This document shows positions 1,997-12,923 of a stretch of 64,000 nt of DNA, one piece after another. Location: contig NC_014633.1 in assembly GCF_000165505.1 (NCBI RefSeq), forward strand, positions 806,001 through 870,000, in the 5' to 3' direction. This stretch comes from Ilyobacter polytropus DSM 2926. GTDB taxonomy: Bacteria > Fusobacteriota > Fusobacteriia > Fusobacteriales > Fusobacteriaceae. How positions within the stretch are numbered: position 1 is the first letter of the stretch; every line of letters starts with the position of its first letter. The notes under the pieces are model-generated. The model was not told the origin of the DNA. It worked only from the letters and a program-made list of their open reading frames with translations, and did no database searches. The translations under genes were made by a program, and so were the position numbers.

Positions 1997-2824
1997 TTAT
2001 TTGAAATAATGTCCTTCTGCTATCTTCTGACTTTCCCCTGTCATAAATACTCCATCATCAGTTAGTTCTATAAAAAGTTTTCCCCCAGGAACTGCTACTT
2101 CTACATTTTTGTCTAGCCGTCCTGTTAGATTTCCTATTACAACCACTGCACAGGCTCCTGTACCACAGGCAAATGTGTAACCAGCTCCTCTTTCCCAGGT
2201 TTTTACGTCTACTCTGTCCTTTGAGATTGCCTTGGCAAAATTAACATTGGTTTTATTCGGGAATATTGGATTTATTTCTAGATTTCTTCCATACTTATAT
2301 ATATCCAATGTTTCTAGATCATCTACAAAAGTTACACTGTGAGTAGTTCCCATAAAAAGAGCCGAAATGCTAAACTCCCTGTCATAAGACTCTATTTTTC
2401 TTTCAATATAATCTTTTTCTGAGACACTCATAGGTATACTGTCAGTCTCAAAAATAGGCATACCCATATTTACCCTGGCCAGATATCTGCCGTCTTTTTC
2501 CTCTGTTTTTATCAGCATGTTTCCTGCCAGAGTTTCTACAGCAATGAGATCTTTTTCTACGAGTTTATTATTTCTCACAAAGTGTGAAAAGCAACGAACT
2601 CCATTACCGCACATAGGAGCCTCACTACCATCGGCATTGTAAAATATCATTCTTATGTCTGCTTTTTCTGATTTTGCGGCAACCATCATTCCGTCTGCCC
2701 CTATACCGAAGTTTCTGTGGCAGACTTTCATAGCCAGCTCAGAATAATCTAGTCCCGCTACTTCTTCTTCCCTGAATATTATAAAATCATTTCCAATACC
2801 ATGATACTTTTCAAATTTTAACAT
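1997..2824 (-). CDS. dapF: Diaminopimelate epimerase
   Basis: DapF interconverts LL- and meso-diaminopimelate, giving the form used by LysA and by peptidoglycan synthesis. Both catalytic cysteines are visible: one in APMCGNGVRC near residue 73 and one in FACGTGACA near residue 220. The N-terminal KYHGIGNDFI is also diagnostic. The length, 275 residues, is normal. A GGAGGGG site sits just before the ATG, and the gene begins 8 nt after lysC. No DAP aminotransferase or DapD/DapH is in the window, so the middle of the pathway must be encoded elsewhere. Confidence 0.96.
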   Translation of the reverse strand: MLKFEKYHGIGNDFIIFREEEVAGLDYSELAMKVCHRNFGIGADGMMVAAKSEKADIRMIFYNADGSEAPMCGNGVRCFSHFVRNNKLVEKDLIAVETLAGNMLIKTEEKDGRYLARVNMGMPIFETDSIPMSVSEKDYIERKIESYDREFSISALFMGTTHSVTFVDDLETLDIYKYGRNLEINPIFPNKTNVNFAKAISKDRVDVKTWERGAGYTFACGTGACAVVVIGNLTGRLDKNVEVAVPGGKLFIELTDDGVFMTGESQKIAEGHYFK

Positions 2825-2832
2825 TGCCCCTC

Positions 2833-4035
2833 CTAGATATTAAATGCTTCTGAGATGGCCTCTACAGCGGCTGCCTTTCTGTCTTTATCCATTGTAAAAG
2901 AGATACTTATCTCAGATGTTGTCACCTGATAGAATTTTATATTCTTCTCTCCGAATATTTCAAAAAGTTTTCCTGCTACTCCAGAATGACTTATCATCCC
3001 CACTCCCACTACAGAAACCTTTATAAGATCCTGGTTCTTACTTATCTTCAGAGCCGGATTCTGAGTTGCAATGATCTCTACAGCTTTATCTAGAAGATCT
3101 TCCTCAGTGGCCGGGCAGGTAAAGCTTATGTCTACCATATCCTCTACAGACTGACTCTGACTAATCATATCCACATTTACATCCTGTTTTCCAAGGGCAG
3201 AAAATATATTTGCTATCTTCTGAGGTTTATTATATAAATTTTGTAAATTTACCATCAAAACATTTTCATTTATGCTAAGTCCTGTTATAAGTTTCTCTTC
3301 CATTATCTGCTCCTTTTCTAATATATAAGTTCCGTTCTTTTCTCCAAGACTTCTTCCCACGTATATTGGGACGCCAAATTTTTTCCCGAGCTCTACGGCC
3401 CTTACTTCCATGACCCCTGCTCCTAGATTTGACATCTCCATCATCTCTTCATAGGAGATCTTATCTATTTTCTTGGCTCCTTTGTGTACCCTAGGGTCAC
3501 ATGTGTATATACCATCTACATCAGTATATATCTCACACTGACAGCCTAAAGCTCCTGCTAAGGCCACTGCACTTGTATCAGATCCTCCACGTCCTAGGGT
3601 TGTTATATCCCCGGCCTCATTCATTCCCTGGAATCCTGCCACAATGACTATTTTCCCATCTGCAAGATGTTTTTCCATTCTTTCATTATTTATGCTTTTA
3701 ATCTTACTTTTTGTATGAGTTCCTGTTGTCTGTATCCCTGCTTGGCTTCCTGTAAGAGATACAGCTTCATGACCCATATTCTTTAGAGCCATAGACAGCA
3801 AGGCGATTGTCTGCTGTTCTCCTGTGGACATGAGCATATCTAGCTCACGCCTGTCAGGTCTGTTTGTGATCTCATTGGCCTTTTTTATCAGCTCATCTGT
3901 CATTTTACCCATTGCTGATACTACTACTACTACCTCATTTCCCTCTTTCCTTACCTTTATGAGGTGCTCTGCTATGGCCTTTATCTTTTCGATTGTCCCT
4001 ACTGATGTTCCCCCGTATTTTTGTACTATTCTCAA
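2833..4035 (-). CDS. lysC: Aspartokinase
   Basis: Aspartokinase phosphorylates aspartate, the first step of the aspartate-family pathway. The N-terminal kinase domain carries KYGGTSVG and VVSAMGK; the glycine-rich TTLGRGGSDTSA lies near residue 150. The last ~135 residues form tandem ACT domains, the usual site of feedback control by lysine or threonine. At 400 residues it is a normal monofunctional enzyme. The start is TTG, 8 nt after an AGGGGGG box. It lies 13 nt after lysA and 8 nt before dapF, so it falls under the lysine riboswitch, which gives transcriptional control in addition to likely allosteric control. Confidence 0.95.
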   Translation of the reverse strand: MRIVQKYGGTSVGTIEKIKAIAEHLIKVRKEGNEVVVVVSAMGKMTDELIKKANEITNRPDRRELDMLMSTGEQQTIALLSMALKNMGHEAVSLTGSQAGIQTTGTHTKSKIKSINNERMEKHLADGKIVIVAGFQGMNEAGDITTLGRGGSDTSAVALAGALGCQCEIYTDVDGIYTCDPRVHKGAKKIDKISYEEMMEMSNLGAGVMEVRAVELGKKFGVPIYVGRSLGEKNGTYILEKEQIMEEKLITGLSINENVLMVNLQNLYNKPQKIANIFSALGKQDVNVDMISQSQSVEDMVDISFTCPATEEDLLDKAVEIIATQNPALKISKNQDLIKVSVVGVGMISHSGVAGKLFEIFGEKNIKFYQVTTSEISISFTMDKDRKAAAVEAISEAFNI

Positions 4036-4048
4036 TTTTTATTCCCCC

Positions 4049-5350
4049 CTAATAAAGCTTGAGATCGTTTCTTATAAGATCCTCATAGCTCTCCCTTTTT
4101 ACAGCTACCTTACTTTCTCCGTCTTTTACAAAAACCACAGCAGGTTTTCTTATTCTGTTGTAGTTACTTGCCATGCTATAATTATAGGCCCCTGTGGTAC
4201 TGATTGCAAGTATATCTCCCTCTTTTGCTTCCTGAAGATATACATCTCTTAGAAGAAGGTCTCCTGATTCACAGCATTTCCCAGCTACTGTTACCAGATC
4301 CTCTGTTTTTTCATTTATTCTGTTGGCAATGACACCCTCATACTCAGCCTGATAAAGAGCAGGTCTTATGTTGTCTGTCATTCCCCCATCTACAAAGACA
4401 TATTTTTTACCGCTGTAAGTTACCTTGGTTCCACCTACTGTATAGAGAGTGGTTCCTGCATTTGCCACTATACTTCTTCCCGGTTCTATTATTACCTTAT
4501 CTAAATCTATCTCATATTCGTCTAGTTTTGATTCTAGGTCTTTTATCATCTCTTTGCAGAATTTTTCAAAGTCCACTGCGTCATCTCCGTCAAAATAATA
4601 CACTCCGAAACCTCCCCCGAGGTTTAATACTGTTGTATCAAGACCGGCCTCATCCTTCATCTGCTTTATGAATTTTAACATAGTGTCCATAGCTGCAAAG
4701 AAAGGCTTCTCGTCAAATATCTGAGACCCTATATGACAGTGAAATCCTTTTAGTTCCACATGCTCAGCCGCAATAAATTTTTTGATTATATCCTTTATAT
4801 TTTCATCAAATATAGATTCTCCAAACTTTGAAGAATAAGTAGAAGTCTGTATATATTCATGAGTGTGAGCCTCTATACCTGGGTTCACTCTCAAAAGAAC
4901 GTTTATTTTCTTTCCCTTTTCTCTGCATACTCTTTCTAACTTATCGAGCTCATCTCTGTTGTCTACGATTATCTCTCCGATACCGTAGTCTAGGCACATC
5001 TCAAGCTCTTCCCAAGTCTTGTTGTTTCCATGCATGTGTACTTTTTCCATAGGAAAACCTGCACTTTTTACTGTAAAAAGCTCTCCCCCTGAAACAACAT
5101 CCATGCTAAGTCCGTGCCTGTCTACGATCTGACACATCCCAGTAGTGAGAAAAGCCTTAGATGCGTAGACAACCTCAGTCTGAAACCTGTCTGATTTAAA
5201 AGCCGCCTTGAATGTCTCCATATTTTTGCTGATAAGAGCCTCGTCCATCACATACAAAGGTGACCCGTGCTTTTCCACAAGCTCTTTAGAGCTTATCCCG
5301 CCTATATAAAGCTGGTTGTCTTTGATCTCCATAGAACCAAAAAGTCTCAT
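4049..5350 (-). CDS. lysA: Diaminopimelate decarboxylase
   Basis: LysA decarboxylates meso-diaminopimelate to lysine using PLP. YASKAF near residue 65 holds the PLP lysine, GFHCHIGSQ near residue 200 is a family signature, GGGFG binds the cofactor phosphate and EPGRS and CCESGD complete the active site. The 433-residue length is normal. This is the first gene of the operon: its ATG follows AAGGGGG and lies 50 nt downstream of an intrinsic terminator that belongs to the lysine riboswitch, so lysine should shut off the whole operon from here on. Confidence 0.96.
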   Translation of the reverse strand: MRLFGSMEIKDNQLYIGGISSKELVEKHGSPLYVMDEALISKNMETFKAAFKSDRFQTEVVYASKAFLTTGMCQIVDRHGLSMDVVSGGELFTVKSAGFPMEKVHMHGNNKTWEELEMCLDYGIGEIIVDNRDELDKLERVCREKGKKINVLLRVNPGIEAHTHEYIQTSTYSSKFGESIFDENIKDIIKKFIAAEHVELKGFHCHIGSQIFDEKPFFAAMDTMLKFIKQMKDEAGLDTTVLNLGGGFGVYYFDGDDAVDFEKFCKEMIKDLESKLDEYEIDLDKVIIEPGRSIVANAGTTLYTVGGTKVTYSGKKYVFVDGGMTDNIRPALYQAEYEGVIANRINEKTEDLVTVAGKCCESGDLLLRDVYLQEAKEGDILAISTTGAYNYSMASNYNRIRKPAVVFVKDGESKVAVKRESYEDLIRNDLKLY

Positions 5351-5399
5351 ACATTTCCCCCTTAAAAAATCTCCATTTTTATATTAAAATTTTATAAAC

Positions 5400-5432
5400 A
5401 AAAAAAGTTGGCAGGGCACAATCCTACCAACT
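5400..5432 (-). terminator. Riboswitch-controlled intrinsic terminator before lysA
   Basis: On the minus strand AGTTGGTAGG pairs with CCTGCCAACT (10 bp, one G-T wobble) around an 11-13 nt loop and is followed by seven T. It stands between the lysine aptamer and lysA, where a lysine-responsive attenuator is expected. Confidence 0.9.
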
Positions 5433-5460
5433 AAATAATAATAAAAAATTATAGTTACGG

Positions 5461-5640
5461 TAAGATAGCACTCCATTGTCTTGGTATAGACAACGACAGT
5501 ACAACGGATATTTTCCGATGCCCCAACCCACTCTCCCGGCACAGAGAATGAATTTCGGCAGATCTCCCTTTTAGAAAACTTCACTGAGCTGGCCGGCCCT
5601 CTATTTTCCTACTAATGATCATCTGCAACCTCTATCTTTA
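5461..5640 (-). promoter_or_regulatory. Lysine riboswitch (L box) aptamer
   Basis: The minus-strand leader of lysA matches the L-box core in order: AGAGGTTGCAGATGATCA followed by TTAGTAG, then ATCTGCCGAA, a GTGGGTTGGGGCATCGG segment, ACTGTCGTTGTC and TGGAGTGCTATCTTA. The closing P1 stem is directly visible: TAAAGATAG at the 5' end pairs with CTATCTTA at the 3' end. It is followed 29 nt later by an intrinsic terminator and then lysA. By family knowledge, bound lysine favours the terminator, so expression is off when lysine is plentiful. A covariance-model search for Rfam RF00168 would settle it. Confidence 0.93.
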
Positions 5641-5645
5641 TTCTA

Positions 5646-5674
5646 ATTTAATTCTCAGTTTCTTTTTTAAACAA
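5646..5674 (-). promoter_or_regulatory. Probable sigma-70-type promoter of the lys operon
   Basis: On the minus strand TTGTTT, a 17-nt spacer and TTAAAT are followed a few bases later by the 5' strand of the riboswitch P1 stem. The position fits transcription beginning at the aptamer. The boxes are imperfect, so confidence is moderate. Confidence 0.5.
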
Positions 5675-6079
5675 ACTACTTTATAGACCTCCAATAAAAC
5701 ATCATTATAATCAAGTAATGATCAATCTATAAGTTGATTTGTTTTATTTTACAACACTTATACTTTTTTTAAAAATTCACAGGATATATTATAGAGATAT
5801 ACAAAACAAATGAAATATCTTTAGGTACTGTAATCACTGGGATATAGTTACACGCAGTTATGTTCGAAAAAATAACTTTTTCATAAAAAACTATAGTTTT
5901 TTTCCCTTACTATCTTTCCTTTTTCTGGAAAATCTGTTAATATTTAAGAATTATAAGAGTCTTTCATTTTTTTAAAAAAATTACATAAAAATTTCTATTG
6001 AAATTTAAGAGGTGATAGGCCAAATAAACAGAATTTAAAATTATATACGTCCGTTTTTTATTGAAATAAGGGGGAAACC
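5675..6079. other. Intergenic region between divergent lys operon and deacetylase gene
   Basis: About 400 nt of AT-rich DNA without a credible gene. It holds an 18-nt perfect palindrome (AAAAAACTATAGTTTTTT, 5886-5903) and the AAGGGGG ribosome binding site of the plus-strand gene at 6080. A plus-strand promoter must lie here but I could not single out convincing boxes, and there is no sign of a second riboswitch. Confidence 0.5.
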
Positions 6080-7210
6080 ATGGATTTAAAAGATTTGGGA
6101 AACCAGATAAAGACCTATAGACGAGAGCTTCACCAGATACCTGAGCTTGGGTTAGAGGAGTATAAAACCTGTGCTTATATAGGGGAAAAATTAAAAGAGT
6201 TTGGGCTGCATCCTTTCACCATCGCCAAAACTGGTGTCTATGTCTACATCGATGCCGGTTCAGATGAAACATACGCCTTCAGGGCAGATATGGATGCCCT
6301 AGAAGCAGAAGAGGAGAACGATGTAGAGTATTCATCAAAACATCCTGGTAAAATGCATGCCTGCGGTCATGACGGTCATATGGCCATGCTTTTAGGACTG
6401 GCCAAAGTCTTGTCAAAAACTGAAAATATCAAGAAAAACATTCTTTTGATCTTCCAGCCTGCTGAAGAGGGGCCCGGAGGAGCCAAGATAATAACTGAAA
6501 GTGGAATATTTGAAAAATATAACGTAAAGGGAATATTTGGTATCCACCTCTTCCCTACATTAGACGAAGGAATCATCGCTTCTAAGGCAGGTCCTTTTAT
6601 GGCTCAGTCTGGGGAAATAGATGTAATAATTAAAGGAGAAGGCGGTCACGGTGGTATGCCTCATAACGCCATCGACTCAATCCTTGTGGCTTCTAAATTT
6701 TTATCATCTTGTCAGTCAATTATCTCAAGGAGTATATCTCCTCTTGAGACTGCCGTTATCTCCTTTGGTAAGATAAGGGGGGGAAGTGCTAGAAATATCG
6801 TGGCTGAAAAAACACATATAGAGGGTACAGTGAGAACCTTTTCAAAGGAGACCTTTGGAATAATCAAGAAAAGAATCCTTCAGATTTCAAAGGGATTAGA
6901 GGAATCTTTTGACGTGGAGATTGATGTCAATCTAGAACCTTACTATCCGCCGGTAATAAACGACAAGGCTCTCTACAAAAAGGTAGCAGAAAAGGTTCAC
7001 ATAGAAGAAACCGATCCTGTTATGCTTGCAGAGGACTTCTCCTACTATCAGGAAAAAATACCAGGGGTATTTTATTTCCTAGGAAGTAGAAACAGAGAGC
7101 TTGGATTTGACTATCCTCTCCACAGCTGCAGCTTCAACTTTGATGAAAAGATTCTTTTAAAGGGTATTGAGCATTATATAAATATACTCACAGCTTTAGA
7201 GGCTATATAA
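6080..7210 (+). CDS. M20 family amidohydrolase, probable N-acetyldiaminopimelate deacetylase
   Basis: A metal-dependent M20D peptidase-family amidohydrolase of 376 residues. Visible motifs are RRELHQIPELG at the N terminus, ADMDAL near residue 74, MHACGHDGHMA near residue 95 (metal ligands), QPAEEGPGG near residue 135 and GEGGHGGMPH near residue 190. The closest family pattern I recognise is the N-acetyl-LL-diaminopimelate deacetylase of the acetylated DAP branch (as in Bacillus YkuR), and its position divergent from the lysine operon supports that. Alternatives are hippurate hydrolase or N-acyl-amino-acid amidohydrolase; the motifs alone do not separate these. It is followed by its own terminator, so it is probably monocistronic. 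Confidence 0.75.
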   Translation: MDLKDLGNQIKTYRRELHQIPELGLEEYKTCAYIGEKLKEFGLHPFTIAKTGVYVYIDAGSDETYAFRADMDALEAEEENDVEYSSKHPGKMHACGHDGHMAMLLGLAKVLSKTENIKKNILLIFQPAEEGPGGAKIITESGIFEKYNVKGIFGIHLFPTLDEGIIASKAGPFMAQSGEIDVIIKGEGGHGGMPHNAIDSILVASKFLSSCQSIISRSISPLETAVISFGKIRGGSARNIVAEKTHIEGTVRTFSKETFGIIKKRILQISKGLEESFDVEIDVNLEPYYPPVINDKALYKKVAEKVHIEETDPVMLAEDFSYYQEKIPGVFYFLGSRNRELGFDYPLHSCSFNFDEKILLKGIEHYINILTALEAI

Positions 7211-7219
7211 TTATTTATG

Positions 7220-7251
7220 AGAGACTGTTCTTCATGACAGTCTCTTTTTTT
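7220..7251 (+). terminator. Intrinsic terminator after the M20 amidohydrolase
   Basis: AGAGACTGT, an 8-nt loop and ACAGTCTCT form a perfect 9-bp stem followed by a run of T. Confidence 0.9.
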
Positions 7252-7282
7252 ATTAATTTAAGTTACTACTCTGAAGGAATTC

Positions 7283-7690
7283 TTATAAATTACTGACTTT
7301 ACAAGAATATTAAAGTCAAAATTATTTTGTCACGAATGAAAACCGATAAAAGGCAGAAAAATTAACACGAATAAGAAGAAAACCTTTTGACCACAGAGGG
7401 CACAGAGAAAAAGAGAAAGTTTCACAGAGTTAAGACGAAAACTAGATACGAGTTCTTTTGCGAGAGGTTTTCGATCTTTTTTCTTCTGCCATTGACAAAA
7501 TCAGCGTTAAGAATAACCGCAGTGAAATCCTTAGAAAAAATCGACTGTCTGAGCGTAGCGAGTTTCGAGTTTTTCTTGGATTTTCAAGGTTATTTAGCTG
7601 ATTTTTCACAGGCTTGAACTTTTGGTTACTTTTCTTTCAAGAGAAAAGTAACGACTTCTTGTAAATTCAATATTTTAATTTAAAATAAAG
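7283..7690 (+). repeat. Dispersed intergenic repeat, copy 1 (MITE-like, left end degenerate)
   Basis: This gene-free stretch shares long similarity with 28292-28790: both begin with TAAATTACTGACTTTA, both contain AGCGTTAAGAAT, CTGTCTGAGCG(T/C)AGCGAGTT and a TTTTTCACAGGC segment, and both end near TTTAATTTAAAATAAAG. The right arm at 7613-7652 is itself an imperfect palindrome, GTTACTTTTC...GAAAAGTAAC. Its reverse complement is identical over 40 nt to the left arm of copy 2 (28319-28358). The left inverted arm is missing here; instead there are three CACAGAG units (7392, 7401, 7423). An ORF of 76 codons across it is not a gene. Confidence 0.85.
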
Positions 7691-7837
7691 GTCTAAGGTT
7701 AATCAATCTATTTGAAAATTTTAAAGGAGCTTCTCAACTCTTGCAGAAAATTATTATATAGGATGTAGTATAAGTAATCTGGAAAAAGTCACAGTTTAAA
7801 TAAAAAGAGACTGTAACTTATTGTGAGGTGATCTTTT

Positions 7838-8701
7838 ATGAAAAATACAGCCCTTGTCTTAGAAGGCGGAGGGATGAGAGGAATATTCACCAGTGGGGTT
7901 TTGGATGCTTTCATAGAAAAAGGAATTGATATTCCCTATATTATAGGGGTTTCCATGGGAGCATACAACGGTGTTTCATATATTACCGGACAAAAAGAAA
8001 GAACCTTTAAGATGTTCATGGACTATATCTACGACCCAAGACTCCTTGACTATAAGAGAATTTTCAAGGGTGATTCCCTTTTAAACTCTGACTTCCTTAT
8101 AAACTTCATGGGAAAAAACAAGTACCCAGTGGATTATGACAAATTTTTTGAAAGTACAAAAAAATTTATCTGTGTCAGCACAAATTGCAACACTGGTAAA
8201 CCTGCATATTTTGAAAAGAATGGATATCCTCAAAAATACTTTAACCGAATATTAAAGTCATCATGCTCTTATCCCTTCCTCACAGACACTGTGAAAATAG
8301 GAGGTGAAGAGTATCTAGACGGAGGTATAGCCGATGCAATTCCTATAAAAAAAGCCTTAGACGACGGCAACAAAAAACTTATTGTCATACTCTGTCACCC
8401 AAAAGGATACGAAGATGAACCCAGCTGGTATCTCAACATATCCAAGCTCTGGTACCATTCCCATCCAAAGGTGGCCGAGGCCCTGAAAAAAAGATATATA
8501 GCCTATAACGGCACCCTTTACTTTCTCGATCTTTTGGAAAAAGAAAATATAGCTTTTGTTATAAGGCCGGAAAGCATGCCCTTATCTGTAATTGAGCAGG
8601 ACAAGGTAAAATTGAGACTTTTTTATAAAGCAGGTTATAATAAGGGTATAGAGGAATGTGAAAGATTAGAAAAATTTTTAAAAACCCCCTCATTGATCTG
8701 A
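7838..8701 (+). CDS. Patatin-like phospholipase family protein
   Basis: A serine lipase of the patatin fold, 287 residues, with no signal peptide. The oxyanion-hole glycine motif EGGGMRGIFTSG is at residues 9-20, the nucleophile serine is Ser39 in GVSMG, and the catalytic aspartate is in LDGGIADAIP near residue 162. It is expected to hydrolyse acyl esters of phospholipids or similar lipids; substrate is unknown. It resembles the short YjjU-like bacterial patatins rather than secreted toxins. Start ATG follows GAGGTG. It is a single-gene unit, downstream of the dispersed repeat and ending in a bidirectional terminator. Confidence 0.88.
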   Translation: MKNTALVLEGGGMRGIFTSGVLDAFIEKGIDIPYIIGVSMGAYNGVSYITGQKERTFKMFMDYIYDPRLLDYKRIFKGDSLLNSDFLINFMGKNKYPVDYDKFFESTKKFICVSTNCNTGKPAYFEKNGYPQKYFNRILKSSCSYPFLTDTVKIGGEEYLDGGIADAIPIKKALDDGNKKLIVILCHPKGYEDEPSWYLNISKLWYHSHPKVAEALKKRYIAYNGTLYFLDLLEKENIAFVIRPESMPLSVIEQDKVKLRLFYKAGYNKGIEECERLEKFLKTPSLI

Positions 8702-8719
8702 AATCAAAAGGGGGTTTTT
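8680..8719. terminator. Bidirectional intrinsic terminator
   Basis: AAAAACCCCCT and AGGGGGTTTTT form an 11-bp stem between two convergent genes; the lipase stop codon lies in the loop. It can serve both strands. Confidence 0.9.
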
Positions 8720-8720
8720 A

Positions 8721-9872
8721 TTATTTGTCTCTGTAAAAATCTGATATCTCTTTTACAGCTGTTATTGCCTCTGTTATTTCTTTTGACGTGTTGAAATATC
8801 CAAAAGAAAACCTCACGGCCCCAGTTTCATATGTTCCTATAGATTTGTGTGCAAGGGGGGCACAGTGCATTCCAGGCCTCACAGCTATGTCATATTCTTC
8901 GTCTAATATGGCACTTAATTCTGCCGGATCTATATCCCCTATATTGAGAGCAACCACAGGTGTCCTTTTTCCTGTTTCCGGTCCGTATACCCTGACTCCC
9001 TCTATACCTTTCACTCCTTTTATAAAGACCTCAGTGATCTCATCCTCATGTTTTCTTATATTTTCCATCCCTGTTTTCAGTATAAAGTCCACTCCTGCTC
9101 CGAGGGCTGCAATTCCAGGAGCATTTAATGTCCCGCATTCCAAAAGGTCAGGCATCTCTTGAGGCTGTCTCTTGAGTTTCGAATGACTCCCAGAGCCCCC
9201 TTCCATAAGTGGCTTTATCTCTACGCCTTTTCTAAGGTATATACCCCCTGTTCCCTGAGGTCCAAAAAGTGACTTATGCCCTGTGAAACACAGAATATCT
9301 ATATTCATCTTATTTACATCTATTTCTAAGATCCCAGCACTCTGGGAGGCATCCACTATAAGGAGAATTCCGTGTTTTTTTGCTATTTCTCCTATTTTTT
9401 CTATGGGAATTATGGTTCCTGTCAAGTTTGAAGCATGGGTTATAACTATGGCCTTTGTATTTTCCTGGATGGATTTTTCTATATCATCAAGGGATATTAG
9501 TCCCTGGTAATCTGCCTCTACTATTGTTAGATCTATTTTTTTCTGTTCTTCCATTGAGAATAGAGGTCTTAGTACAGAATTGTGCTCTAAGGAAGTGGTT
9601 ATCACGTGATCACCCTTTTCAAGGACTCCCTTTATTGCAAAATTCAGACTCATAGTTGCGTTTTGTGTAAAGGCTATTCTAAGTGGATCATCTATATTAA
9701 AGAGTTTTGCCAGCTTTACCCTTGTTTCATAGACTGCCCTAAAGGCCTCTATAGCCATCCTGTGGCTTCCCCTTCCTGGATTCCCGCCTTTATTTCTCAT
9801 AGTTTCTATTAAGACACTGTACACCTCATCAGGTTTGGGGTAACTAGTGGCTGCATTATCAAAATAAGACAT
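8721..9872 (-). CDS. Cysteine desulfurase family protein (class V aminotransferase fold)
   Basis: A PLP enzyme of 383 residues resembling the cysteine desulfurase/selenocysteine lyase group. FDNAATSYPKP opens the protein, TQNATMSLN binds PLP, TGHKSLFGPQGTGG near residue 205 holds the PLP lysine, and RPGMHCAPLAH near residue 340 contains the candidate persulfide cysteine. The pattern fits the subgroup described from Enterococcus EF2568 (sometimes near selenium genes) rather than classic IscS; no selenium genes are visible here. The ATG at 9872 has GAGG 8 nt before it and is preferred over the GTG three codons upstream. It would release sulfur or selenium from cysteine or selenocysteine; the acceptor is unknown. 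Confidence 0.85.
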   Translation of the reverse strand: MSYFDNAATSYPKPDEVYSVLIETMRNKGGNPGRGSHRMAIEAFRAVYETRVKLAKLFNIDDPLRIAFTQNATMSLNFAIKGVLEKGDHVITTSLEHNSVLRPLFSMEEQKKIDLTIVEADYQGLISLDDIEKSIQENTKAIVITHASNLTGTIIPIEKIGEIAKKHGILLIVDASQSAGILEIDVNKMNIDILCFTGHKSLFGPQGTGGIYLRKGVEIKPLMEGGSGSHSKLKRQPQEMPDLLECGTLNAPGIAALGAGVDFILKTGMENIRKHEDEITEVFIKGVKGIEGVRVYGPETGKRTPVVALNIGDIDPAELSAILDEEYDIAVRPGMHCAPLAHKSIGTYETGAVRFSFGYFNTSKEITEAITAVKEISDFYRDK

Positions 9873-10091
9873 TTTTTTCACCTCATTATTTTTTGTTTTG
9901 GTGATATAATAAATATATCATACAAAGTTTAAAGGAACTTTTCAGAAAAAGTAGAATATTTTTTATGTTTCTACTTTAATTAAATTAACTATTTTTATGG
10001 ATTCGTCTATTTTCGTCAAGGAAAAGTAACTATAATTAATCAATTAACTTATTATAACATCAAAACATATAAAAATTTGGAGGTTTTTTTC

Positions 10092-11429
10092 ATGAAAATT
10101 ATAATTATAGGAGGAGTGGCTGCAGGTATGAGTGCCGCTTCCAAAGCCAAAAGAACACTTAAAGATGCTGAAATTACCGTATATGAAAAAACTGACGTTA
10201 TTTCATGGGGTGCCTGCGGACTTCCCTATTATATAGGGGGATTTTTCCAAAGCACCAACAATATGATGGCTAGATCCATAGAAAAATTCAGAGAATCAGG
10301 AATTGATGTGCAAATAAAACACGAGGTCTTATCAGTAGACCACATCAATAAAAAAATTAAAATTAAAAAGCTGGTAAATGGTGAAATTTTTGAAGATTCT
10401 TATGATAAGCTTATGATCGCTACAGGGGCCAGTGCTATAATACCACCTATCAAAAATGTAAAACTTGAAAATGTATTCACACTGAAAGAGTTTCAGGACG
10501 GGGTGGACCTAAAGGATGCTGTCTCTAGGGAGGAAAATAAGAATATTGTGATAATAGGTGCTGGTTATATAGGTATAGAGGCTATAGAGGCTATGCACCA
10601 TCTCGGCAAAAATGTCAGAGTTATTCAGCTGGATAACAGGGTGCTTCCTGAGAGTTTTGATAAAGAGATCACCGATATTATGGAGAATGAGATTCTTTCT
10701 TATCAAAATATCAGCCTTCACCTTGGTGAAACTGTAAAAGAGTTAAAGGGAGAAAAACAAGTAAAAGCTGTCATAACCGATAAAGGAATCTATGAGGCAG
10801 ACATAATAATCATCGCAACTGGTATAAGACCGAATACAGCTTTTATAAAAGAAACCGGGATAGAAATGCTAAAAAACGGTGCCATTATCATCGACAAACA
10901 GGGAAGATCAAGCATTGAAGATATCTATTCTGCCGGAGACTGTGCCACAGTACCCCACAGGGTAAAAAATGAAAATGTCTACATCCCCCTTGCAACTACT
11001 GCAAATAAAATCGGAAGAGTGGTAGGAGAAAATCTTGCTGGAAAAAACAGTAGTTTCTTTGGAACTCTAGGATCTGCAGCTGTAAAAGTCCTGAACTTAG
11101 AGGCAGGAAGAACTGGAATATCCGAAACTGATGCCAAGAATATGAATATAAACTACGGTGTTGTATTTATAAAGGATAAAAATCAGACTAATTATTATCC
11201 AGGACAGGAAAATATATATATTAAGTTGATATATGAAAAAGATTCTAAAGTAATCCTGGGAGGACAGATAGTTGGAAAAAAAGGAGCGGTCCTTCGTATA
11301 GATGTCATTGCTGCCGCTATACATAATAAAATGACCACAGAGGATCTAGGTATGCTTGATCTATGCTATGCACCACCTTTCGCAAGAACCTGGGATGCCC
11401 TTAATATTGCAGGGAATGCAGCCAAGTAA
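10092..11429 (+). CDS. CoA-disulfide reductase / NADH oxidase-type flavoprotein
   Basis: An FAD-dependent pyridine nucleotide-disulfide oxidoreductase of 445 residues. IIIIGGVAAGMSAA is the FAD fold, a single redox cysteine at residue 42 lies in SWGACGLPYY, IIGAGYIGIEA near residue 155 is the NADH fold, and YSAGDCA near residue 280 contacts FAD; a dimerisation domain follows. The single Cys42 is typical of CoA-disulfide reductases and water-forming NADH oxidases, which protect anaerobes from oxygen and thiol stress; which reaction occurs cannot be told from sequence. The start is the ATG at 10092, 8 nt after GGAGG; a TTG five codons earlier would overlap that box. It ends in a strong terminator. 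Confidence 0.9.
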   Translation: MKIIIIGGVAAGMSAASKAKRTLKDAEITVYEKTDVISWGACGLPYYIGGFFQSTNNMMARSIEKFRESGIDVQIKHEVLSVDHINKKIKIKKLVNGEIFEDSYDKLMIATGASAIIPPIKNVKLENVFTLKEFQDGVDLKDAVSREENKNIVIIGAGYIGIEAIEAMHHLGKNVRVIQLDNRVLPESFDKEITDIMENEILSYQNISLHLGETVKELKGEKQVKAVITDKGIYEADIIIIATGIRPNTAFIKETGIEMLKNGAIIIDKQGRSSIEDIYSAGDCATVPHRVKNENVYIPLATTANKIGRVVGENLAGKNSSFFGTLGSAAVKVLNLEAGRTGISETDAKNMNINYGVVFIKDKNQTNYYPGQENIYIKLIYEKDSKVILGGQIVGKKGAVLRIDVIAAAIHNKMTTEDLGMLDLCYAPPFARTWDALNIAGNAAK

Positions 11430-11447
11430 GAATAAATTTTATAGTTT

Positions 11448-11476: not shown

Positions 11477-11481
11477 ATAGA

Positions 11482-11517
11482 AAAAGCTCACTTAGATCAA
11501 AATCTAAGTGAGCTTTT
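11482..11517. terminator. Second perfect hairpin, likely bidirectional terminator
   Basis: AAAAGCTCACTTAGAT and ATCTAAGTGAGCTTTT form a 16-bp perfect stem with a 4-nt loop just 5 nt after the previous terminator. The A and T runs at its base allow function on either strand. The following ~140 nt to 11658 show no gene. Confidence 0.65.
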
Positions 11518-11658
11518 AGGGAGGGTTCAGAACGGGGGAGTTCTGATTATGAAAATACTTATTGTTTATAAATCAAGTATACCTTATCTCTTTTGTAAAG
11601 AATAGGACAAGTGGCATAAATCTCAATTATTTTTCTTGTTTTTCAATAAAATTAGAAA

Positions 11659-11697
11659 TAAAAAAAGACCCACTGAATGTATTCTTCAGAGAGTCTT
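11659..11697 (-). terminator. Intrinsic terminator after the tandem small-protein genes
   Basis: On the minus strand AAGAC-TCT-CTGAA pairs with TTCAG-TGG-GTCTT (two 5-bp helices around an internal mismatch) followed by seven T. It lies about 80 nt after the second small gene. Confidence 0.7.
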
Positions 11698-11777
11698 AAA
11701 TTATAAAATTTGATTTTCCAAACACAAGAGATGTCCACTTCCCTTCCCAGTACTTTCTATTTCTTAAATTTTAAGAA

Positions 11778-11924
11778 TTAGAAATTAAAAACTATGTCTT
11801 CGTAGGAATCTTCCTTTTCATATAATTTATCCCAATCAACATTGGTTTTTAAAACTTCATATTTATTCTTTTCAACATAAGACATATACTCACAAAACTT
11901 TTCATAATCCATGTTCTTTTTCAT
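11778..11924 (-). CDS. 48-residue acidic small protein, tandem paralogue 2 (function unknown)
   Basis: A short reading frame starting ATG after a GGGAGG box 9 nt upstream and encoding 48 residues. I do not recognise the family. It ends DWDKLYEKEDSYEDIVFNF and is paralogous to the gene 35 nt upstream (11960-12106): the two are the same length and agree at 31 of 48 positions by hand alignment, most strongly in the last 19 residues. The protein is rich in Glu, Asp, Lys and Tyr, has one cysteine and no membrane segment. Paralogy, strong ribosome binding sites, one promoter and one terminator make a real gene likely. Confidence 0.82.
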   Translation of the reverse strand: MKKNMDYEKFCEYMSYVEKNKYEVLKTNVDWDKLYEKEDSYEDIVFNF

Positions 11925-11959
11925 AAATTTTCCTCCCTTTTCACAATCAGAGCGTTATA

Positions 11960-12106
11960 CTAAAAGTTAAAAACTATATCCTCGTATGAATCTTCACTTT
12001 CATAAAGTTTATCCCAGTCTATATTGTTTTCCATAACTTTGTACTTCTCTTTCTCTAGAAGAGACAGATATTCATGAATTCTTTTCAAGTCGTCATTATT
12101 TTTCAT
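11960..12106 (-). CDS. 48-residue acidic small protein, tandem paralogue 1 (function unknown)
   Basis: First of two tandem small genes. The ATG follows AAGGAGG by 8-9 nt. The 48-residue product shares the C-terminal DWDKLYE-x-EDSYEDIVFNF with its neighbour, with an N-terminal half that looks helical (EYLSLLEKEKYKVMENN). A good promoter lies 45-72 nt upstream and there is no other gene in the unit. Nothing in the sequence gives a function; the conserved acidic, aromatic tail suggests a binding surface, which is inference only. Confidence 0.82.
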   Translation of the reverse strand: MKNNDDLKRIHEYLSLLEKEKYKVMENNIDWDKLYESEDSYEDIVFNF

Positions 12107-12150
12107 GGCGGCTACCTCCTTAAAATTTTTTTATTTCTTCTTATGTAAAG

Positions 12151-12178
12151 AGTATAGCACGCCAATTTAAATTTACAA
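12151..12178 (-). promoter_or_regulatory. Promoter of the tandem small-protein genes
   Basis: Minus strand TTGTAA, 16-nt spacer, TATACT, followed by the leader and a strong ribosome binding site of the gene starting at 12106. Confidence 0.65.
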
Positions 12179-12233: not shown

Positions 12234-12923
12234 CTAATTTATTGACTTCTCAGCTATTACAATTGCCGATGCGGCTTCAATAAATACGTCCATTACCGCT
12301 GCAATACATGGATATTTCAGCTCTTTATTGGGAGAAAAAGTAACCTGAACACGGTTTGGATATGATTGTGCAGTCAGAGCTGTCACCTTGGTAGATTTTA
12401 TTCCCATGCCAAATTGAATAGCCTCTATTTCTAAAACAGTTGAAAAAAGGAGTTTGGAAAGATCTGCCTTTATGAGGTTCATATCCACTTCTGCAGGAAG
12501 AGAACATTCTACAGTTCCTCCAAAAGAATCTTTGGTCATTATCATTTTTTGAATTCCTATTTTTATATACTCACTGTTCTTTTCATTGGTGCTTATACCG
12601 CCTATATCAATGGTTTTTCCTTCTATACTCCCCTTAACTAACTTCTTTGCAAGTACTCCGGCTAAAATTACTGCAGAGAATATATCACCCTTTTTGTATT
12701 CAAACTTGATATCCTCACCTGTGGTTTTTTCATCTATTATCCCTGAAACCACATCTATCTCTTCCTCAGGGTCTAGTGTGACTCCTTCCATCTCTCTTCT
12801 GGCTAGGTCTTTGCCAAAGTCCACGGCAGTGATATCTATCCCACCAGGAACTCCAGAAACGACTAGATCTACCCCATCGAAATTTTCCGTTATGTTTATT
12901 CTGAATCTCTCTCCAAACAACAT
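12234..12923 (-). CDS. Divergent, shortened chorismate-synthase-like protein
   Basis: A 229-residue protein whose landmarks follow chorismate synthase from end to end: FGERFRI at residues 3-9, VSGVPGGIDI near residue 24, DLARREMEG, IDVVSGIIDEKTTGEDI near residue 57, GGTVEC near residue 135, LEIEAIQFGMGI near residue 165 and a C-terminal YPCIAAVMDVFIEAA resembling the HDPC helix. True chorismate synthases are about 350-390 residues. Here the GESHG catalytic loop is replaced by ITENFDG and much of the centre is missing, so ordinary EPSP-to-chorismate activity is doubtful. Start ATG follows AGGAGGG. It stands alone, not beside aromatic genes. Function unknown. Confidence 0.75.
   Translation of the reverse strand: MLFGERFRINITENFDGVDLVVSGVPGGIDITAVDFGKDLARREMEGVTLDPEEEIDVVSGIIDEKTTGEDIKFEYKKGDIFSAVILAGVLAKKLVKGSIEGKTIDIGGISTNEKNSEYIKIGIQKMIMTKDSFGGTVECSLPAEVDMNLIKADLSKLLFSTVLEIEAIQFGMGIKSTKVTALTAQSYPNRVQVTFSPNKELKYPCIAAVMDVFIEAASAIVIAEKSIN

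What the first reader, a model, noticed from the sequence alone, without database searches (positions are those of the whole stretch)
11659..12178. Tandem pair of paralogous 48-residue proteins with no recognisable family
Two small frames (11778-11924 and 11960-12106, minus strand) have the same length, agree at 31 of 48 residues by hand alignment and share an almost invariant 19-residue acidic/aromatic tail (DWDKLYE-x-EDSYEDIVFNF). Each has a strong ribosome binding site; there is one clear promoter and one terminator, and no larger gene in the unit. They are too short for usual gene callers. A dedicated two-gene transcript for such proteins suggests a regulatory or binding role (sRNA-like peptide, inhibitor, or partner protein), which is inference.
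Basis: partly seen in the sequence, partly recalled or inferred. Interest (0 to 1): 0.62.

Follow-up and report, generated by a model that had tools for sequence, protein, structure and literature searches.

The report
Genus-only paired small acidic proteins
Two neighbouring, related 48-residue protein genes are real and strongly conserved in three species of one bacterial genus, but nothing like them was found anywhere else, so what they do can only be inferred: probably small abundant cytoplasmic proteins that bind a shared partner through their acidic tail.

Summary
Two 48-codon frames (11960-12106 and 11778-11924, minus strand) are 31/48 identical. The unit has a conserved extended -10 promoter, strong ribosome-binding sites and a rho-independent terminator. 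Orthologous units sit at the same place, directly downstream of a 229-residue chorismate-synthase-like gene, in the only two other genomes of the genus held: one has two copies, the other three. No relative was found in 95 other Fusobacteriota genomes, GTDB genomes, viral contigs, plasmids or phages, and no family or structure match: a genus-restricted orphan family. AlphaFold gives an N-terminal helix and a low-confidence tail. Best explanation (inferred): abundant cytosolic binding proteins whose paralogue-specific helix gives oligomerisation or specificity, while the common tail ending in F-x-F-COOH docks on one shared partner. A mimic of the SSB tail was tested and lacks its defining residues. 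The neighbouring conserved C-rich sRNA-like gene shows no special pairing with the unit.

The parts
11960..12106 (-). ORF1, 48 aa: MKNNDDLKRIHEYLSLLEKEKYKVMENNIDWDKLYESEDSYEDIVFNF; pI 4.5
   Evidence: orthologues in G041 (GTG start) and G042, 46/48 identical each
11778..11924 (-). ORF2, 48 aa: MKKNMDYEKFCEYMSYVEKNKYEVLKTNVDWDKLYEKEDSYEDIVFNF; pI 4.6
   Evidence: orthologues in G041 (46/48) and two tandem copies in G042 (44/48 each)
12151..12178 (-). promoter-like site TTGTAA-16-TATACT with TG extension
   Evidence: -10 region invariant and -35 region nearly so in the three species
12114..12121 (-). ribosome-binding site of ORF1 (AAGGAGGT)
   Evidence: invariant in three species
11931..11940 (-). 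ribosome-binding site of ORF2 (AAAGGGAGGA)
   Evidence: invariant in three species
11658..11697 (-). rho-independent terminator of the unit
   Evidence: folds as a hairpin with T run in all three species
12234..12923 (-). upstream neighbour in all three species: 229-aa chorismate-synthase-like protein; homologues elsewhere in the family lack the small genes
11481..11619 (-). sRNA-like gene downstream (neighbour, not part of the protein unit): conserved upstream block, -10 TATACT, C-rich hairpin loop, terminator

Best explanation
Two paralogous, genus-restricted small-protein genes in one short transcription unit. Shown: they are conserved, intact, under strong amino-acid-level purifying selection, and the duplication into ORF1 and ORF2 is older than the split of the three species. 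Inferred: strong ribosome-binding sites and a good promoter give abundant soluble acidic proteins. Each has an N-terminal helix (about residues 3-26) that differs between the paralogues and gives oligomerisation or individual specificity. The common acidic-aromatic tail (DWDxLYE..DSYEDIVFNF, with a free C-terminal Phe) docks on one shared partner protein. They would act as stoichiometric adaptors or inhibitors of that partner.
For: Only two other genomes carry relatives, both of the same genus, at the same place. Synonymous difference 0.34-0.92 against amino-acid difference 0.017-0.057 per site between orthologues. The aligned proteins show an invariant tail and a paralogue-specific N-terminal half. 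Between ORF1 and ORF2 of this genome the tail has 0.86 synonymous but only 0.06 amino-acid difference, whereas residues 2-29 have 0.80 and 0.32, so tail identity here is selection, not recent gene conversion. AlphaFold models of both paralogues agree on the N-terminal helix (block means up to pLDDT 85-87) with a low-confidence tail. pI 4.5-4.6, hydrophilic; no signal peptide or membrane segment is apparent in the sequence.
Against: No partner is identified, no structure or family match exists, and no expression data are available. The helix's amphipathicity is only weakly above shuffles (p 0.03 and 0.08). In G041 and G042 the tails of the paralogues are closer at synonymous sites (0.46, 0.31), so exchange between copies probably contributes to tail identity there.
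Confidence: 0.42

Rival explanations
1. SSB-tail decoy: the tail imitates the C-terminus of single-stranded-DNA-binding protein and competes for SSB-binding repair and replication proteins.
For: The host's own SSB ends ESFEDDDEFPF and the small proteins end EDSYEDIVFNF: both have S-aromatic-E-D followed by F-x-F-COOH.
Against: In all 27 SSB tails read from the phylum the end is acidic residues then FPF; the small proteins lack the penultimate Pro and have Ile-Val where SSB has acids. The comparison is post hoc.
Confidence: 0.08
2. Partner or regulator of the adjacent 229-residue chorismate-synthase-like protein, rather than of a distant target.
For: That gene is the only neighbour kept on one side in all three species while the other flanks are rearranged, and no terminator is seen between them.
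Against: 21 homologues of the 229-aa gene elsewhere in the family have no such small genes next to them; three related species are few.
Confidence: 0.12
3. Precursor peptides (RiPP, bacteriocin or signal peptide) made as tandem near-copies whose conserved C-terminus is the product.
For: Tandem paralogues with variable copy number (2, 2, 3) and an invariant C-terminus.
Against: No modification enzyme, protease or exporter recognised directly next to the unit in the window or evident from the translations in the other two species; no leader cleavage motif or signal sequence.
Confidence: 0.05
4. Antitoxin-like or orphan antitoxin pair.
For: Small, acidic, paired, helix plus uncertain tail.
Against: No toxin frame in the unit in three species, no match in PADLOC, Pfam or NCBIfam.
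Confidence: 0.04
5. Leader peptides or a regulatory RNA rather than functional proteins.
For: A short transcript; its untranslated leader and spacer are also well conserved.
Against: Changes fall on third codon positions; random placement of changes gives about four to six times more amino-acid changes; the genes beyond the terminator differ between species.
Confidence: 0.04

Closest known systems
Lineage-restricted (orphan) bacterial small proteins that bind and modulate a larger partner (general class, own knowledge)
   Same: About 50 residues, soluble, helical, strong ribosome-binding site, no family match, purifying selection
   Different: Here two to three tandem paralogues share an invariant C-terminal tail; no partner known
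SSB C-terminal tail (SSB-Ct) of the same species and phylum
   Same: Acidic stretch after S-aromatic, ends F-x-F with free carboxylate
   Different: No penultimate proline, Ile-Val instead of acidic residues, no OB-fold domain

Membership tests
Any Pfam, NCBIfam, PHROG or PADLOC family | Profile score above cut-off or significant E-value | tested here: not met
   nothing above cut-off; best PHROG E 0.03, not significant; a Pfam match at E 0.007 (poxvirus protein) is below that family's cut-off
SSB-tail (SSB-Ct) mimic | Acidic residues directly followed by a hydrophobic residue, Pro and terminal Phe, as in the host's SSB | tested here: not met
   host SSB DDDEFPF, small proteins YEDIVFNF; terminal Phe and F at -3 met, Pro and acids at -4/-5 not
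Protein-coding gene (as against chance frame) | Synonymous change exceeds amino-acid change between species, frame intact | tested here: met
Type II toxin-antitoxin module | Adjacent toxin gene | tested here: not met
   no further frame in the unit in any of three species
Small binding or inhibitor protein | Physical interaction with a partner | not testable with these tools
   needs pull-down or two-hybrid; only monomer structure prediction was available

The most novel reading that the evidence does not exclude
A genus-specific protein family that evolved a C-terminal acidic F-x-F tail to plug into the partner pocket of a core protein-interaction hub (for example the SSB-binding proteins), with tandem paralogues differing mainly in their helical specificity part.
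Probability: 0.07. Interest if true: 0.6.

Novelty: new member of a known kind. Interest (0 to 1): 0.33.

Why it matters
It is a clean example of a real, strongly selected small-protein family that is confined, as far as searched, to one genus and its large second replicon, with a recent extra duplication visible in one species, so it is a usable test case for how orphan small proteins arise and find partners. The function is unknown, and nothing shown here overturns current views.

Tried and rejected
Relatives outside the genus: sought over 95 further Fusobacteriota genomes by single sequence and by profile, GTDB genome contigs (9, 26), viral contigs (10, 25), plasmids and phages: none. Weak hits with short open frames (L037, L042, L043, L046, L050) were read and look like chance. 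Regulation of ORF2 by the neighbouring C-rich sRNA-like gene through its AGGGAGG ribosome-binding site: the predicted pairing ranks 34th of 69 (near copy) and 18th of 69 (chromosomal copy) among start regions of the window, so not special. Rfam search of the region: nothing above gathering score. Fold search against the PDB: no match. Literature on I. polytropus or Fusobacterium small proteins gave nothing on these genes; papers on FoxI and FoxJ of Fusobacterium nucleatum (PMC11005410) bear on the sRNA only.

Full report
Observation. Both frames are present as described. They are 48 codons each, 35 nt apart, 31 of 48 residues identical, and preceded by AAGGAGGT and AAAGGGAGGA. A TTGTAA-16-TATACT promoter with TG extension lies at 12178-12151. 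That scan finds no excess of promoter-like sites over shuffles, but this site is conserved in all three species. A hairpin with a T run at about 11697-11658 folds in all three species. No terminator is seen between the unit and the upstream gene ending at 12234, so read-through from it is possible.

Source. The window is positions 806001-870000 of a 961,624-base replicon in a 3.13 Mb genome of three contigs. Replicon number and sizes fit Ilyobacter polytropus and its large plasmid; this identification is from memory, and the record itself was not held. The two related species carry the unit on replicons of 965,686 and 869,888 bases.

Relatives. Of 96 genomes of the order and 98 of the phylum searched, only the window's own genome and two others of the same genus have relatives. 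G041 has two copies, with a GTG start at the ORF1 position. G042 has three copies at a period of 181 bases. Nothing was found in GTDB genome contigs, viral contigs, plasmids or phages, and no significant match in Pfam, NCBIfam, PHROGs, PADLOC or the PDB.

Selection. Between orthologues the synonymous difference is 0.34 to 0.92 per site and the amino-acid difference 0.017 to 0.057. Random placement of the same base changes gives on average 6 to 15 amino-acid changes where 1 to 4 are seen (p at most 1.5e-4 in each of four pairs). All frames are intact. ORF1 and ORF2 group with their orthologues by identity (92-98% against 58-69%), so the duplication predates the three species. Within this genome the paralogues' tails have 0.86 synonymous but 0.06 amino-acid difference, against 0.80 and 0.32 for residues 2-29: the tail is held by selection. 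In G042 the end of the second copy and the spacer after it resemble those of ORF1, as expected if the third copy arose by unequal crossing-over in the tail (reading; inference).

Surroundings. Upstream in all three species is a 229-residue protein with a partial chorismate-synthase match. The flanks beyond this block are rearranged: G041 lacks the window's neighbours at 2546-11432, and G042 has other genes on the polysaccharide side. The 229-residue gene has full-length homologues in 21 genomes of the family outside the genus, and reading of small frames next to those found no similar genes. Downstream lies an sRNA-like gene (see noticed in passing).

Structure and mechanism. AlphaFold gives a helix at residues 3-26 or 5-28 with fair confidence and an uncertain, partly helical tail; a fold search gave no match. 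The proteins are acidic (pI 4.5-4.6) and hydrophilic. The most economical reading is an abundant cytosolic binding protein: a paralogue-specific helix and a common docking tail ending in F-x-F-COOH. The genes and their selection are shown; abundance, docking and the adaptor or inhibitor role are inferred.

Tail comparison. The host's SSB ends ESFEDDDEFPF; the small proteins end EDSYEDIVFNF. The 27 SSB tails read from the phylum all end in acidic residues followed by FPF; the small proteins lack the penultimate Pro and the acids at -4/-5. The SSB-mimic reading is therefore kept only as a low-probability rival.

Verdict.

Noticed in passing
window 11481-11619 (-); paralogue at G000:C1:995352-995494 (L070); also L054, L055, L071: An sRNA-like gene family found only in the genus at strong scores: a conserved block TTATGCCAYYTGTCCTATTCTTTA upstream of a -10 box, a hairpin with a C-rich (C5-C7) loop, and a terminator; five pairs show changes on both sides. 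One copy lies next to the small-protein unit, one on another replicon. The C-rich seed recalls FoxI/FoxJ of Fusobacterium nucleatum (PMC11005410); no homology shown.
   Followed up: partly
L072 around 1501-1522 (G042:C4:100003-100146): The G042 copy of that sRNA-like gene next to the unit has its hairpin loop inverted (GGGGGA for TCCCCC) and lacks the conserved upstream block; probably a decayed copy.
   Followed up: no
window 12234-12923 (-): A 229-residue divergent chorismate-synthase-like protein (matches only an N-terminal part of the Pfam profile), kept in 24 genomes of the family at 43-51% identity outside the genus, beside a separate relative in an open frame of 339 residues elsewhere in the same genome.
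   Followed up: partly
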